A stretch of 64,000 bases of DNA from Dokdonia sp. PRO95. Its GTDB lineage: Bacteria; Bacteroidota; Bacteroidia; Flavobacteriales; Flavobacteriaceae. Below the pieces are notes generated by a model that was given only the letters and a program-made list of their open reading frames with translations, did not search any database and was not told the origin of the DNA. The stretch is from assembly GCF_000355805.1 (NCBI RefSeq), contig NZ_CM001837.1, forward strand, positions 1,720,108 through 1,784,107, written 5' to 3'. A program made the position numbers and the translations under genes. Below are positions 56,719 to 64,000 of the stretch, piece by piece. How positions within the stretch are numbered: the first letter of the stretch is position 1; each line of letters begins with the position of its first letter.

Positions 56719-57396
56719 TTGAAGACAATCACAAAATACTGGTTTTTAGAGGGTTTTAATCTCTTTAAGAAGCTCGGAATGATCAACATGATGAAAATGT
56801 GCGAGATTCTTGAAATGGATACTATAGAAAAAGGTAAGCGCATCGAACTTAGAGATGAGCATAAGAATAGTGTTTTTTTCTTAAAAAAGGGAAGTGTCAA
56901 AATTGTAGATAAAACGAGCAACACTGCTAAGTACATAGTTAAAAGGGGAAATGTCTTTGGGGAGCTTGCTTTATATGATAAGGCAGCTGCAAGTGAAGAA
57001 ATTGCTTATGCGTTAGAAAGCTGTGTTATATGTTATATAGAATCCAATGAGATGGAATCGCTTATGGATAAGCACAAATCCCTTAAAAATGGACTTCTCA
57101 AAATCTATGGCTTACGTATTCAAAAACTTGAACGACGACTACATGATTTGTTATACAAAGACAGTACAACAAGAATTAAGGAGTTTATATCAGATTATCT
57201 AGAAGAATTTGGAGAGGCTGAAGTATCTGGTCGTTTACACGACAAGAACCTTTTAAGACACAAGGATATTGCAAACCTCACAAATACTTCTAGGCAAACT
57301 GTTAGCAATGTATTGAGTTCCATGAGAAAAGAAGGCTTTATAAATTATAATATGGAATTCATTTCAAAAGCATCTCAGAACCTTGATGAGGTTTAA
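56719..57396 (+). CDS. Crp/Fnr-family transcriptional regulator
   Basis: 225 residues from a TTG at 56719; a shorter ATG start at 56779 would cut into the first part of the sensor domain. N-terminal cyclic-nucleotide-binding-like beta-barrel (FFLKKGSVKIV, GNVFGELALYD), dimer helix and C-terminal winged helix (HKDIANLTNTSRQTVSNVLSSMRKEGFI). The cAMP-contacting Arg-Ser of Crp is not seen after GELALYD, and no Fnr-type N-terminal Cys cluster exists, so the signal is unknown. It lies 271 bp upstream of the envelope operon at 57668 and may control it. Confidence 0.85.
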   Translation: MKTITKYWFLEGFNLFKKLGMINMMKMCEILEMDTIEKGKRIELRDEHKNSVFFLKKGSVKIVDKTSNTAKYIVKRGNVFGELALYDKAAASEEIAYALESCVICYIESNEMESLMDKHKSLKNGLLKIYGLRIQKLERRLHDLLYKDSTTRIKEFISDYLEEFGEAEVSGRLHDKNLLRHKDIANLTNTSRQTVSNVLSSMRKEGFINYNMEFISKASQNLDEV

Positions 57397-59990: not shown

Positions 59991-60257
59991 ATGAATTTTA
60001 TAAAAGAATTATTTGGAGATAAGGTTAAAGCTGTATCTGATCTATCGATAGGGTACTGTCCAAATTGTTGGGGTGATCAGGAGTATGATAATCTTATAAG
60101 AGAAAAGTATAATGACGTCCAAATAAATGTAAACAACCACACTGCTAGTTATGCGTTTGTACAGGATTTCATTGTAACTCATATGAATGGAATCAAACTT
60201 AAGAGTACTGTAAAAGGTACTGAGTGTCCTACTTGTAAAATTGTAAACAAGAAATAA
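59991..60257 (+). CDS. Small CxxC protein (zinc ribbon-like)
   Basis: 88 residues with two CxxC pairs, YCPNCWG near residue 22 and ECPTCK near the C-terminus, that together could hold one zinc. No signal peptide or membrane helix. Its stop overlaps the start of the next gene by one base. The family is not recognised. Confidence 0.6.
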   Translation: MNFIKELFGDKVKAVSDLSIGYCPNCWGDQEYDNLIREKYNDVQINVNNHTASYAFVQDFIVTHMNGIKLKSTVKGTECPTCKIVNKK

Positions 60258-60637
60258 TGAGTACAAAAATCACATACTATTTAATTGTTGTACTCTTAAT
60301 TATAGGGCTGTATGGAGCGGGAACTCTCGTGATTGATGAACTCGCCACTGGTGATAGTTGTCCAAAAATACTGTACATACCGATGTGCATTGTAGTACTA
60401 GTATGTTTTTTAGTACCACTTGTAGCACATCTTCTTAAAAAATGGAATGTATTGTATTTTCTATTTGCAGGATTAGCTTTTGGCATAGCCTTCATCGCAT
60501 CTATAATGCAATACCTAGGAGAAGCTGAGTGCCCAAAAACAGAATCAGGGACACCTATGTGTTACTATTCCTTAGTGCTATTTAGTAGCATAATTGGTTT
60601 AAGAATTTTTTATTTAAAATCTAAGAATGACCACTAA
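60257..60637 (+). CDS. Four-helix membrane protein with paired cysteine loops
   Basis: 126 residues with four membrane helices. The two loops after helices 1 and 3 carry similar motifs: CPK-x4-PMC (around residue 34) and CPK-x5-PMC (around residue 94), so the protein seems an internal duplication with two Cys pairs on the same side of the membrane. Paired cysteines suggest a redox or metal role. The family is unknown to me. The next gene starts 1 bp after its stop. Confidence 0.65.
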   Translation: MSTKITYYLIVVLLIIGLYGAGTLVIDELATGDSCPKILYIPMCIVVLVCFLVPLVAHLLKKWNVLYFLFAGLAFGIAFIASIMQYLGEAECPKTESGTPMCYYSLVLFSSIIGLRIFYLKSKNDH

Positions 60638-60638
60638 T

Positions 60639-63600
60639 ATGAAAACTTTCCATCTAAAAAAATCACCTCTATTATGTGCGTTACTATTAGTAAGCTATTT
60701 TGCTACTGCACAACAATTAGAGACTTCCATATTTGTAACTGCAAATACAGGAAATACAGACGATCAAGCTGTTTTAACTAAAATAAATAATGAAGCCAAA
60801 ACATTGAGTGATTCACAATTACTCATACTTGGTAATGCAGTATCTGACAATGGTTTTACAAAAGGAGCTAGTGCAGAAATAGCATCGCAACTAGAAATAT
60901 TAGAATTATTTAATGGTAAAGTGATTTTTACTCCAGGTCAGAACGAATGGGCCGCTAATGGGCACAGAGATGTGAGAAAGATAGAAGCGTTTATTCAAGA
61001 AAATAGTAAGTCAAAATTCTATCCAGATAAAGGTTGCCCCATTAAAAAGGTAAATATTACTGACAACGTCGTTCTAATAACTGTAGACTCACAATGGTAT
61101 CTAGAAGACTGGAATGAGCATATCTATCTAAACGAAGATTGTGATATTAAAAACAGGACAGAGTTTTTTCTAGCTTTTGAGAGTATGCTTAAAAAGTCGC
61201 AAGGAAAAACAATAATGGTAGCAATGCATCATCCTGTTTTTTCAAATACTAATGAAGGATTAATAGCTAGAACAGGTGGGACTTCTCTACACGATTTTCA
61301 AAACAAGCAAAACAGAAAATTTAGGAATCGTCTAGTCACTCTTGCAAGGCAGACAAAGGATATTTTCTTTGTTTCTGGACACGATAAAAATTTACAATAC
61401 ATTAATAAATATGGAGTTCCTCAAATAATAAGTGGAGCCGCAGGTAAAACAAGAAAGGCATCTGTAAAAGGTGATAAAGATTTCGCTTCAAGCGAAAATG
61501 GCTATGCACGAATTGATGTTTTTAAAAACGGTACTGTAAAAGTTTCTTTTCAAGGTATCTCAACGCCATTCTCAGCTACAATCATGGAGGCAGAGAAGGA
61601 AGAAATCGTTAATTATAAAGAAAGAAGTAGCTTTAATAATACGTTTAGCTCATCTGTATATACGTTAGAAGAAACCGAAAAAAGCAAACTGTACAAAGGG
61701 CTTTGGGGAGACCATTATAGAGAATACTATAGTAAATCAGTAAATGCTAAAGTAGCTTTTATAGATACCTTAAAAGGAGGGCTCACTCCTGTAAGGCGAG
61801 GAGGTGGCCACCAGTCTAAATCGCTGCGACTAGAGACTAAAGACGGAAAAGAATATGTAATGCGAGCTCTAAAGAAAAGCGCGATTAAGTTTTTACAATC
61901 TACTGCGTTTCAAGACAAATATGTAGAAGAAGAACTAGAAGGAAGTTTTGCAGACAAATTTCTCTTAGATTTTTATACAACTGCTCATCCTTACACTCCT
62001 ACAACTATAGGAACTCTCGCAGATGCTGTAAATATTTTCCATACTAACCCAGAGTTGTACTATATACCTAAACAACGAGATTTAGGTGAGTATAATGACG
62101 AGTATGGTGATGAATTGTATCTTATTGAAGAACGCGTAGAATCTGGACATAAAGACTTAGAAAGTTTTGGAAAGCCAAAAGATATTTTAAGCACAAGCGA
62201 CGTACTCTTAGAAATAAATAAAACGGGAAAGTCTATAGTAGATGAACCATCATACATTAGAGCAAGACTTTTTGATATGCTCATAGGCGACTGGGACAGG
62301 CACGAAGATCAATGGCGTTGGGCACTTTTTGAAAATGAAGACGGTTCGGAAATATGTAAACCTATTCCAAGAGACAGAGACCAAGCGTTTTCAGTTTTTG
62401 ATGGAAGTATATTGGGATTTTTGCGTTGTGCAGTTCCGAGCTTACGTATGATGCAGTCGTTTGATGAGGAATTACCAAGCCCTAAGTGGTTTAGTTTTGA
62501 GCCATACCCATTAGATATGACTTTTATTAATCAATCTAATTGGGAAGATTGGGAAAGAGAAGCAATAACCTTACAAACTGGATTAACAGATGAGGTAATA
62601 GAAAATGCATTCCAAAATCTACCAGCAGAAGTTGAAGGTCAAACAATTGAAGAAATTAAGAAAAGTCTTAGAGGAAGAAGAGGTAATATTATAGATATCG
62701 CTCGCAGATACTATGATTATGTAAACAAACACGAAGTTATTACTGGAACACAGAAAGATGATGTCTTTGATATCACAAGGCTTCCAAACGGGCAAACTAA
62801 AATTACCGCTCAAAGAAAAGACCTAGAAATCTTTGAAAGAATATTTAATAAAGATGAAACTAAAGAAATTTGGATTTATGGTTTAGATGGTAATGATACC
62901 TTCAACGTAACAGGAGAAGGAAACAATCACATCACTATAAAGGTTTTAGGAGGAAAGAAAAATGACATTTATAATTTTGAGAATACAAAAAAAGTGAAAC
63001 TCTATGATTATAAAGGGAAGAATAATACCATCGTTAATAACAAGTCAAAAAAATGGCTAGTAGATGATTATGAGATAAATAACTACGATTATAAAAAACG
63101 TAAATATAGTATTAATCAATTTTTGCCCATCATAGGCGCAAACCCTGACGATGGATTACGTATAGGTTTTGTGAATAACTTTACAACATATGGGATTCAG
63201 CGCAATCCATTTACTACAAAGCATTCGGTGAGTGCTTCATATTATACTGGTAATTCCGGTTATGATGTTTCTTATAAAGGAGAGTTTGCAAATATATTTC
63301 ATAACTGGAATTTTGGAGTAGAGGGGAAATATACGAGTCCAAATTTTGCACAAAACTTTTTTGGTTTTGGGAATGAAACGCTTTATGATAAAGATGAAGT
63401 GGAGATTGATTTTAATAGGGTAAGTATAAAAGAATGGAATGTAGCTATTTCCTTGATTTGGAATGGTAGAGATGGAGGTTCGTTTTACTTCAAACCTTTA
63501 ATAGAATCTTTTGAAGTAGAAAATGTAGAAGATAGATTCATAAACTTTCTACCTGCGACGGCTTCAGTTTTTGAAAAACAAACCTATGCAGGTGCAGAAG

Positions 63601-64000
63601 TTAATTACAGTTTTAAAAACAAGGATGATATCGCTTACCCTACATTAGGATTAGATGCGAGTATCACGGCAGGTTATAAAGCTAATATTGATGGAGAAGA
63701 CATCGACAATAATTTTGGATATGTACGTCCTCACATAGCAATAGATCATAGATTAAACAAAAGTGCCAGTCTTGTACTAGCAACAAAGATAGGTGGAGAA
63801 GCTATTCTTGGTGATAATTTTGAGTTTTACCACGGGGCTTCTTTAGGCGGTAATCACAGTCTGCGAGGGTTTAGAAAAGAACGTTTTATTGGTAAGTACT
63901 CAGTATATCAAAATACAGACTTGAGATTGCTGTTAGGTAAATTTAAAACCAGTTTTATACCACTTAAGTATGGTGTAACTGGAGGTTTTGACTACGGGAG
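60639..64000 (+). CDS. Metallophosphoesterase-like / kinase-like / Omp85-like fusion protein (partial)
   Basis: Open for 1120 codons, running off the window. A signal peptide ends FATAQ. Domain 1 (about 25-300) has a calcineurin-type metallophosphoesterase layout but key motifs are changed: GDxGN is ANTGN (35-39), GDN is GNA (65-67), GNHD is GQNE (100-103); HHP (197-199) and GHDKN (247-251) remain. Domain 2 (about 370-720) has kinase-like motifs: GGGH loop, Lys in YVMRALKK (406-413), DWDRHEDQW (551-559) and PRDRDQAF (577-584), like HipA/Fam20-type kinases. From about 770 it is a beta-rich barrel resembling Omp85/BamA, with GNHSLRGFRKERF near the end. It lies last in the visible 57668 operon, 1 bp after the previous stop. 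The kinase assignment is my inference. Confidence 0.7.
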   Translation, partial: MKTFHLKKSPLLCALLLVSYFATAQQLETSIFVTANTGNTDDQAVLTKINNEAKTLSDSQLLILGNAVSDNGFTKGASAEIASQLEILELFNGKVIFTPGQNEWAANGHRDVRKIEAFIQENSKSKFYPDKGCPIKKVNITDNVVLITVDSQWYLEDWNEHIYLNEDCDIKNRTEFFLAFESMLKKSQGKTIMVAMHHPVFSNTNEGLIARTGGTSLHDFQNKQNRKFRNRLVTLARQTKDIFFVSGHDKNLQYINKYGVPQIISGAAGKTRKASVKGDKDFASSENGYARIDVFKNGTVKVSFQGISTPFSATIMEAEKEEIVNYKERSSFNNTFSSSVYTLEETEKSKLYKGLWGDHYREYYSKSVNAKVAFIDTLKGGLTPVRRGGGHQSKSLRLETKDGKEYVMRALKKSAIKFLQSTAFQDKYVEEELEGSFADKFLLDFYTTAHPYTPTTIGTLADAVNIFHTNPELYYIPKQRDLGEYNDEYGDELYLIEERVESGHKDLESFGKPKDILSTSDVLLEINKTGKSIVDEPSYIRARLFDMLIGDWDRHEDQWRWALFENEDGSEICKPIPRDRDQAFSVFDGSILGFLRCAVPSLRMMQSFDEELPSPKWFSFEPYPLDMTFINQSNWEDWEREAITLQTGLTDEVIENAFQNLPAEVEGQTIEEIKKSLRGRRGNIIDIARRYYDYVNKHEVITGTQKDDVFDITRLPNGQTKITAQRKDLEIFERIFNKDETKEIWIYGLDGNDTFNVTGEGNNHITIKVLGGKKNDIYNFENTKKVKLYDYKGKNNTIVNNKSKKWLVDDYEINNYDYKKRKYSINQFLPIIGANPDDGLRIGFVNNFTTYGIQRNPFTTKHSVSASYYTGNSGYDVSYKGEFANIFHNWNFGVEGKYTSPNFAQNFFGFGNETLYDKDEVEIDFNRVSIKEWNVAISLIWNGRDGGSFYFKPLIESFEVENVEDRFINFLPATASVFEKQTYAGAEVNYSFKNKDDIAYPTLGLDASITAGYKANIDGEDIDNNFGYVRPHIAIDHRLNKSASLVLATKIGGEAILGDNFEFYHGASLGGNHSLRGFRKERFIGKYSVYQNTDLRLLLGKFKTSFIPLKYGVTGGFDYG

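What the first reader, a model, noticed from the sequence alone, without database searches (positions are those of the whole stretch)
60639..64000. Phosphoesterase-like, kinase-like and Omp85-like parts in one outer-membrane protein
The N-terminal domain keeps the phosphoesterase layout but has lost several metal ligands (ANTGN, GNA, GQNE in place of GDxGN, GDN, GNHD). The middle has a GGGH loop, VMRALKK, DWDRHEDQW and PRDRDQAF, which together look like the catalytic core of HipA/Fam20/CotH-like kinases. The C-terminal part is a BamA-like barrel. An extracytoplasmic kinase-like domain delivered with its own Omp85 barrel would be new to my knowledge; it could modify surface proteins, glycans or lipids.
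Basis: partly seen in the sequence, partly recalled or inferred. Interest (0 to 1): 0.82.

Follow-up and report, generated by a model that had tools for sequence, protein, structure and literature searches.

The report
Kinase-like enzyme on outer-membrane barrel
A widespread but uncharacterised bacterial protein joins a worn-out phosphatase-like part, a kinase-like part with its key residues intact and an outer-membrane barrel, and in many relatives its gene sits near genes linked to making polyphosphate, so it may be a phosphate-transferring enzyme working just under the outer membrane.

Summary
The gene (start 60639; cut by the window end; 1175 aa counted from 60627) encodes a degenerate metallophosphoesterase (MPPE), a middle domain, a small beta domain and an Omp85 barrel without POTRA. 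The middle domain has no Pfam family, but a confident AlphaFold2 model (pLDDT 89) matches protein-kinase-like structures (HipT, RIO2, PI4K-II). Twelve kinase-type positions checked are kept in 139-145 of 146 homologues; four rows lost many at once. The phosphoesterase decayed repeatedly while the kinase part stayed constrained. The parts also occur apart, once as three adjacent genes. MPPE-Omp85 fusions were listed in 2014 ('Metallo'; PMC4104836); my searches found no paper naming the kinase. New here: the gene is linked to PycTM genes (48 of 72 genomes, 14 of 19 families) and, less often, to polyphosphate kinase (10 of 67 genomes), in places as compact operons. Most likely it is a periplasmic kinase, with or without a working phosphatase, anchored under the outer membrane and tied to polyphosphate physiology. 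Activity, donor, acceptor and topology are inferred, not shown.

The parts
60257..60637 (+). 126-aa membrane protein ORF; one base lies between its stop codon and the ATG at 60639 (probable translational coupling)
   Evidence: ORF list, DNA; its cluster lies directly before the kinase gene in 9 of 122 loci, L006 included
60639..60710 (+). signal peptide (MKTFHLKKSPLLCALLLVSYFATA, then QQ; type I by eye, no signal-peptide program was run)
   Evidence: sequence
60726..61562 (+). metallophosphoesterase-type domain with metal ligands lost (ANTGN, GNAV, GQNE, GHDK; MHHP kept)
   Evidence: motif positions; paralogue P0003 hits PF00149 at 1.3e-9, the window copy has no PF00149 hit; 74 of 110 homologues intact, 36 not
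61659..62726 (+). protein-kinase-like domain (residues 345-700)
   Evidence: AlphaFold2 pLDDT 89 for residues 330-832; Foldseek top hits are kinases; conservation
61797..61811 (+). glycine-rich loop RGGGH between two strands
   Evidence: G392 and G393 in 142 of 146, G394 in 140 of 146; strands 387-391 and 397-403
61857..61877 (+). next strand, VMRALKK: R413 at the place of the usual kinase lysine (equivalence recalled, not measured), K417 four residues on
   Evidence: R413 142 of 146, K417 143 of 146; strand 409-417
62283..62315 (+). catalytic-loop motif IGDWDRHEDQW (D557 presumed catalytic, Q562 at the metal-Asn place)
   Evidence: D557 144 of 146, H559 142 of 146, Q562 143 of 146
62361..62390 (+). 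metal-site motif PIPRDRDQAF (D583 presumed DFG-Asp equivalent, D585 beside it)
   Evidence: D583 143 of 146, D585 142 of 146
62727..63071 (+). small beta domain between kinase and barrel (GGxxND-like turns)
   Evidence: strands in the model; occurs with the kinase without a barrel (L119, L120) and with a barrel without a kinase (L155)
63102..64000 (+). Omp85-type beta-barrel, cut by the window end
   Evidence: 16 long strands in the model of orthologue L008; BamA/TamA/SAM hits; NCBIfam Omp85_fam 9.6e-14, below its curated cut-off; ShlB 0.00097, below cut-off

Best explanation
It is an outer-membrane-anchored kinase. An Omp85 barrel without POTRA and a small beta domain hold an atypical protein-kinase-like domain in the periplasm under the outer membrane. 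The domain transfers phosphate to an envelope acceptor (protein, lipid or glycan). In most of the near relatives a fused MPPE acts on the same phosphate pool, removing the mark or hydrolysing the donor; in this copy, and in several other lineages, that phosphatase has lost its metal ligands and only the kinase and a possible regulatory role remain. The system is tied to polyphosphate physiology: in some distant lineages the gene lies in or beside an operon with PPK1, a SixA-like phosphatase, HD-PycTM and an SdiA-regulated-type propeller. Shown: sequence, predicted fold, conservation, separable modules, gene linkage. Inferred: catalysis, periplasmic site, acceptor, donor and the functional meaning of the linkage.
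For: Kinase-like fold with high model confidence and Foldseek probability 1.00 to HipT 7vkb, RIO2 and PI4KIIalpha, with PI3K and Fam20-type kinases further down. Kinase-type residues kept in 141-145 of 146 for R413, K417, D448, E501, D555, D557, R558, H559, Q562, D583, D585. The four rows that break the DRH triad (L121, L135, L137, L126_2452) also lost four to nine of the nine other positions checked; nine further rows differ at one position only (E501, D561 or Q562). Picked by HMM without a motif filter, 112 of 113 kinase-domain ORFs in L006-L117 keep DRH; the other, L072, is cut before the motif. Mean pairwise identity among 25 of the 36 degenerate-MPPE rows: MPPE 0.558, KIN 0.703, barrel 0.677; among 46 rows taken as intact (300 random pairs; one, L067, has one changed motif): MPPE 0.645, KIN 0.678, barrel 0.557: constraint relaxed on the MPPE alone. 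Three-gene split version in L119 and other partial fusions. Linkage: PycTM within 10 kb of a KIN gene in 48 of 72 KIN genomes (62 have PycTM), 49 of 78 copies, against about 0.008 expected per copy; PPK1 within 10 kb in 10 of 67 genomes that have it, 12 of 96 copies; compact gene rows in L147, L123, L190.
Against: Foldseek TM-scores are low (in the 50 rows shown 0.13-0.35 by query, at most 0.49 by target, rmsd 7.6 A or more). No sequence-level match to a known kinase family; hhalign to HipA is in register but not significant (E 0.37, probability 0.2). The usual lysine appears to be an arginine and the usual Asn a Gln. Periplasmic ATP is scarce (general knowledge). In the window's own genome no PPK1 lies near any copy. 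All 15 further genomes with PPK1 at 10-20 kb belong to one family, f23, so they may be one inherited arrangement. 24 of 72 genomes have neither PPK1 nor PycTM within 10 kb (some are fragmented drafts).
Confidence: 0.5

Rival explanations
1. Pseudokinase sensor. The domain keeps the kinase fold and binds a nucleotide or polyphosphate, but gates the barrel or a partner instead of transferring phosphate.
For: R in place of the usual lysine and Q at the metal-Asn position; in this protein the neighbouring MPPE has itself lost its metal ligands.
Against: D557, R558, H559, D583 and D585 are kept across deep divergence, and rows that break the DRH triad lose other positions too, as expected of enzymes rather than binders.
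Confidence: 0.22
2. Surface-delivery Omp85. The barrel translocates the kinase and phosphoesterase to the outside, where they act on host, neighbour or matrix molecules.
For: Omp85 barrel fold; enzyme domain N-terminal to the barrel as in PlpD.
Against: The PlpD enzyme domain was found exclusively in the periplasm (PMC11116518, abstract); in L119 the kinase and phosphoesterase carry lipoprotein-like signals by eye and the barrel is a separate gene, so fusion to the barrel is not needed there.
Confidence: 0.13
3. Envelope lipid or glycan kinase-phosphatase unrelated to polyphosphate: it phosphorylates an outer-membrane lipid or lipopolysaccharide group; the PPK1 linkage only reflects general phosphate physiology.
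For: PI4KIIalpha is among the nearest folds; the PlpD paper has a section titled as altered membrane lipids in its mutant (outline); an isoprenoid-pathway gene (diphosphomevalonate decarboxylase by eye) lies four to seven genes away in 11 of 122 loci; another kinase-like family is predicted to decorate lipopolysaccharide (PMC9758233, section 9 read).
Against: The neighbours that recur across distant families are PycTM, PPK1, SixA-like and the propeller; I saw no lipopolysaccharide gene among the recurrent clusters printed, which I judged by eye and Pfam for eight proteins only.
Confidence: 0.15

Closest known systems
Omp85 'Metallo' subfamily (Heinz and Lithgow 2014, PMC4104836; section 10 and found passages read)
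   Same: PF00149 domain N-terminal to an Omp85 barrel in a non-POTRA architecture; its barrel is said to resemble the 'noNterm' class. Probably the same proteins (inferred; their sequence tables were not seen).
   Different: The paper calls PF00149 a metalloprotease domain and its main text holds no occurrence of 'kinase'. The kinase-like domain, the repeated loss of phosphoesterase ligands, kinase-barrel proteins without MPPE and the gene neighbourhood are not in the text I read.
PlpD, patatin-like Omp85 of Pseudomonas aeruginosa (PMC11116518; abstract and outline seen)
   Same: Enzyme domain N-terminal to an Omp85 barrel; a precedent for a periplasmic, barrel-anchored enzyme.
   Different: Patatin lipase with a POTRA domain; here MPPE plus kinase-like domains and no POTRA found.
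HipA/HipT, PI4K-II, RIO2 and Fam20 kinases (protein-kinase-like fold)
   Same: Fold; order of motifs, DRH-type catalytic loop and metal Asp by recalled comparison.
   Different: No significant sequence relation found (HipA and CotH also by hhalign); R-x-x-x-K in the lysine strand, Q after DRH, exported, joined to a barrel.
Other bacterial kinase-like families predicted to decorate secreted or envelope molecules (Lani_1194, Lcin_0519; PMC9758233, passages and section 9 read)
   Same: Kinase-like fold; proposed envelope targets; the passage on Lani_1194 names Flavobacteriales homologues.
   Different: Lcin_0519 carries a methyltransferase domain and is said to lie near O-antigen transport genes; the section says the same of a methyltransferase in Lani_1194. 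No sequence comparison with the present family was made.
Calcineurin-like and related polyphosphatases (yeast PPN1, PPN2; PMC6973038, passages read)
   Same: Metallophosphatase class, as in the intact MPPE copies; such enzymes can act on polyphosphate.
   Different: No test that the MPPE here acts on polyphosphate; the window copy lacks the metal ligands.

Membership tests
Omp85 superfamily | 16-stranded C-terminal barrel with the RGF-type motif loop | tested here: met
   16 long strands, 824-1170, in the L008 model; LRGFR at 1079-1083 of the window protein; BamA/TamA/SAM hits, E 8.6e-11 to 1.9e-8 in the 50 rows shown
[quoted passage not shown]
   MPPE, kinase and beta domains precede the barrel in the model; no POTRA family among Pfam hits of three copies. 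Non-POTRA subfamilies are accepted in PMC4104836, so this does not exclude membership
Protein-kinase-like fold | Kinase fold by structure comparison | tested here: met
   Foldseek rows shown carry kinase-fold titles, probability up to 1.00, E down to 7.8e-5; TM-scores low
Protein-kinase-like fold | Catalytic Asp, metal Asp, glycine loop | tested here: met
   D557, D583, G392-G394 conserved; equivalence rests on motif order and recalled motifs, no coordinates superposed
Protein-kinase-like fold | Lysine of the third strand paired with a helix-C glutamate | tested here: inconclusive
   R413 and D448 conserved instead (142 and 144 of 146); geometry not measured
HipA_C (PF07804) | Sequence match to the family | tested here: not met
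   Not among the hits listed for 76 members (25 of 28 families shown) or three full copies; hhalign E 0.37
CotH (PF08757) | Sequence match to the family | tested here: not met
   Not among the hits listed for 76 members (25 of 28 families shown) or three full copies; hhalign E 0.41, not aligned on the catalytic motif
Fam20C (PF06702), PI3_PI4_kinase (PF00454) | Sequence match to the family | tested here: not met
   Not among the hits listed (25 of 28 families shown); no alignment-to-alignment comparison was made
Metallophosphoesterase PF00149 | Metal-ligand motifs (GD, GDN, GNHD, GHxH) | tested here: not met
   Window copy lacks most ligands and has no PF00149 hit; paralogue P0003 meets them
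Omp85 'Metallo' subfamily | PF00149 domain plus Omp85 barrel | tested here: inconclusive
   Met for paralogue P0003 (barrel by homology); the window copy no longer matches PF00149. Their sequence list was not seen
Active protein or lipid kinase | Phosphoryl transfer | not testable with these tools
   Needs biochemistry

The most novel reading that the evidence does not exclude
A polyphosphate-powered envelope kinase: PPK1-derived polyphosphate replaces ATP as phosphate donor outside the cytoplasm, the atypical kinase domain (conserved R413 and K417 instead of the usual lysine) uses it to phosphorylate outer-membrane components, and the fused MPPE trims the polyphosphate or removes the mark; HD-PycTM and the propeller serve transport or control. 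This would be a new kind of extracytoplasmic phosphorylation system.
Probability: 0.1. Interest if true: 0.94.

Novelty: new variant of a known kind. Interest (0 to 1): 0.72.

Why it matters
Extracytoplasmic kinases are few in bacteria and lack an obvious phosphate donor (general knowledge). This kinase-like family, absent from the Pfam copy used here, is fused to an outer-membrane barrel; it is present in 26 of the 27 genomes of the window's family that one search lists (14 of the 26 from one genus; 108 unmatched genomes of that call are not listed) and more thinly across the phylum (18 of 198 class genomes). It gives a concrete protein for asking how the outer membrane is phosphorylated and what polyphosphate does outside the cytoplasm. 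It also bears on an Omp85 subfamily described in 2014 as a metalloprotease fusion, and gives PycTM-domain proteins, which PADLOC reads as defence effectors, a second, apparently different context.

Tried and rejected
Pfam, NCBIfam and PADLOC gave no kinase family for the middle domain (the Pfam hits of single members were scattered weak families). PADLOC gave two weak matches of paralogue P0003 to PDC-M03A (E 0.0024 and 0.0059) on 25-49 residues at 593-641, i.e. around the catalytic loop; not followed up. A profile search of PDB sequences gave only weak unrelated hits. hhalign against 11 HipA-type and 15 CotH-type sequences was not significant. The BFVD search gave viral kinase-like proteins, a phage PI3/4-kinase-type protein first, with similarly low TM-scores. 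A plasmid tblastn found 5 records (Hymenobacter 3, Persicobacter 1, Parabacteroides 1); four are annotated 'hypothetical protein', one has no feature. The idea that Riemerella OMP76 is this protein was dropped: the passages describe a 710-aa protein with extracellular loops; a Riemerella metallophosphoesterase paper cited there is not held, so whether that enzyme is a relative is unknown. The anti-phage reading of the locus was not pursued: only the PycTM half of the neighbour matches strongly.

Paper searches for the kinase or the polyphosphate link: 20 of 21 papers listed; 10 of 15; 12 of 13; 2 of 3; 10 of 44; 8 of 8; 10 of 7,377; 1 of 1. None of the listed titles and abstract starts described either; the library holds open-licence papers only. 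Distribution outside Bacteroidota was not tested beyond the plasmid search.

Caveats on counts. The 110 near homologues were picked with a DRH motif filter; one search repeated the pick by HMM without it: 113 ORFs in 112 loci, two more than the filter found (L092, which has DRH; L072, cut before the motif); L088 was dropped as a duplicate. The 36 distant rows come from 34 of 40 loci that I chose from the hits. The 46 'intact' and 25 'degenerate' rows are subsets chosen by me. Tree labels were set by hand: L035 and L067, degenerate by one motif, were labelled intact; L140 and L148, labelled intact, also lack some ligands; L156 and L157, kept apart as 'check', are degenerate; four decayed rows were left out. 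The lipobox pattern (35 of 74 intact, 3 of 36 degenerate) is crude and not relied on. Equivalences to PKA, PI4K and Fam20C motifs are recalled; no coordinates were available. A notebook entry calls the two paralogues divergent; they are convergent.
Full report
What is there. The ORF is open from 60627 to the window end. In the genome the gene is 1175 aa long counted from 60627. The genome holds two further full-length paralogues, side by side and convergent: P0002 (partly degenerate MPPE) and P0003 (intact MPPE motifs; PF00149 E 1.3e-9). Four parts can be told apart: MPPE 34-312, kinase-like 345-700, beta domain 701-815, barrel 826-1175 (boundaries set by me).

Kinase-like domain. Pfam has no family for it: the window protein gives no hit up to E 10, and the hits of 76 alignment members are scattered, weak families (25 of 28 shown). 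AlphaFold2 on residues 330-832 with 76 sequences gives pLDDT 89 and pTM 0.89. Foldseek against the PDB returns kinases: a bacterial kinase complex (7vkb; the Legionella HipT-type protein lpg2370 according to passages of PMC9758233), RIO2, PI4KIIalpha, ABC1/COQ8-type, HipT, PI3K-gamma and Fam20-type. TM-scores are low (at most 0.49 by target in the rows shown), so the domain is a divergent member of the fold and no close copy of a known kinase. hhalign to HipA aligns DWDRHEDQW with NYDDHTKNF in register but without significance.

Conservation. Over 146 kinase domains (110 near, 36 distant) the counts are R413 142, K417 143, D448 144, E501 141, D555 145, D557 144, R558 144, H559 142, D561 139, Q562 143, D583 143, D585 142. 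Thirteen rows differ at any of these twelve positions: nine at one position only (E501, D561 or Q562), and four (L121, L135, L137, L126_2452) with a broken DRH triad and four to nine of the nine other positions changed or missing; these look like decayed pseudokinases. By recalled comparison with PKA, PI4K and Fam20C, R413 sits where the ATP-binding lysine usually is, Q562 where a metal-binding Asn usually is, and D583 at the DFG-Asp place.

Phosphoesterase. 74 of 110 near homologues keep the metal ligands and 36 do not; two of the 36 (L035, L067) differ in one motif only. The label 'degenerate' needs 5 changes on a kinase-domain tree of 142 rows, at least 3 forced by well-supported branches (hand-set labels, see Tried and rejected); L156, L157, L140 and L148 are further cases of lost ligands. 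In the degenerate subset the MPPE is clearly less conserved than kinase and barrel; in the intact subset it is nearly as conserved as the kinase and more than the barrel. So the kinase part, not the phosphoesterase, is the constant feature.

Modularity. In distant genomes the kinase-like domain occurs alone (L118), with the beta domain (L119, L120; two genes in L187 and three in L188), as kinase-beta-barrel proteins (frames of 855-934 aa) without MPPE, and as the full protein. L119 encodes kinase-beta, MPPE and barrel as three adjacent genes on one strand; the first two begin with lipoprotein-like signals by eye. L155 has beta-barrel without kinase. These splits are consistent with a shared function.

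Barrel and topology. The full-length model of orthologue L008 (pLDDT 86.8, pTM 0.83) shows 16 long strands; the window protein has LRGFR at 1079-1083, which corresponds to the stretch between strands 11 and 12 of that model; Foldseek hits are BamA, TamA and SAM barrels. No POTRA domain is seen. In PlpD the N-terminal enzyme domain was found exclusively in the periplasm (abstract). I infer the same here.

Neighbourhood. Clustering of neighbouring ORFs over 122 loci and Pfam scans of eight representatives pointed to PycTM (often HD-PycTM), PPK1, a SixA-like histidine phosphatase, an SdiA-regulated-type propeller and an 800-aa protein with a borderline GAF hit. Whole-genome searches in 72 genomes with a kinase-region match (distances): PycTM within 10 kb in 48 of 72 genomes (62 have PycTM), 49 of 78 copies, 14 of 19 families; PPK1 within 10 kb in 10 of 67 genomes that have it, 12 of 96 copies, 6 of 19 families; 25 of 67 within 20 kb, the 15 added ones all from family f23. 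Random placement predicts about 0.008 per copy; counting families instead of genomes, with 12 copies each, gives about 1e-11 for PycTM and 0.005 for PPK1. This assumes random placement and independent families. L147 has HD-PycTM, PPK1, propeller, MPPE-kinase-barrel and the GAF-type gene in a row on one strand; L123 has kinase-barrel, propeller, PPK1 and HD-PycTM on one strand; L190 has HD-PycTM, propeller and the full protein in a row, with a PPK1 fragment at the locus edge; L192, L122, L124 and L127 are variants; L189 has SixA-like, PPK1, two short ORFs that both match HD-PycTM, and a lone MPPE 2.7 kb on. PPK1 and PycTM are within 10 kb of each other in 12 of the 72 genomes. Against: in the window's genome no PPK1 is near any copy, although both of its PycTM genes lie near kinase genes, at 0.8 and 7.4 kb; 24 of 72 genomes have neither nearby.

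Distribution. At least 91 of 247 sampled phylum genomes have a match reaching the kinase region (counted by me from the cut listing; two of them partial); 119 of 247 match some part of P0003. A profile of the domain finds 18 of 198 class genomes at E 1e-10. Other phyla were not tested.

Known work. Heinz and Lithgow (PMC4104836; section 10 and passages read) list 'Metallo' Omp85 proteins with PF00149, called metalloproteases; 'kinase' does not occur in the main text. I found no paper describing the kinase domain or the polyphosphate link in the searches named in Tried and rejected. PPN1 and PPN2 (PMC6973038, passages read) show that metallophosphatases can act on polyphosphate.

Verdict. A real, conserved protein family with a divergent kinase-like domain on an Omp85 barrel; enzymatic activity, donor, acceptor and topology remain to be shown.

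Noticed in passing
L007:12204-13466 (+), beside and divergent from paralogue P0003: HD-PycTM protein (PF18967 8.2e-37, HD 1.2e-7); PADLOC reads the PycTM half as a Pycsar effector, yet PycTM genes sit near kinase-barrel genes in 14 of 19 families, so this type may be a housekeeping protein misread as defence.
   Followed up: partly
L119:3949-8094: Kinase-beta, MPPE and barrel as three adjacent same-strand genes, a natural split of the fusion.
   Followed up: yes
L121, L135, L137, L126 (ORF at 2452): Kinase-barrel proteins with a broken DRH triad and other changed kinase-type residues: likely pseudokinases; in L126 a decayed copy lies next to an intact one.
   Followed up: partly
L187:3936-7275 and L188:4129-9148: Clusters of two and three kinase-beta genes without a barrel.
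   Followed up: no
L007:13520-15955 (-): An 812-aa protein with a borderline GAF hit; its ORF cluster occurs in 29 of 122 loci, most often two genes from the kinase gene; function unknown.
   Followed up: no
window 56719-57396: Crp/Fnr-like regulator (by eye); its ORF cluster lies upstream on the same strand in 23 of 122 loci, directly before the kinase gene in 17.
   Followed up: no
P0003 residues 593-641: Weak PADLOC matches to the candidate PDC-M03A around the catalytic loop (E 0.0024 and 0.0059).
   Followed up: no
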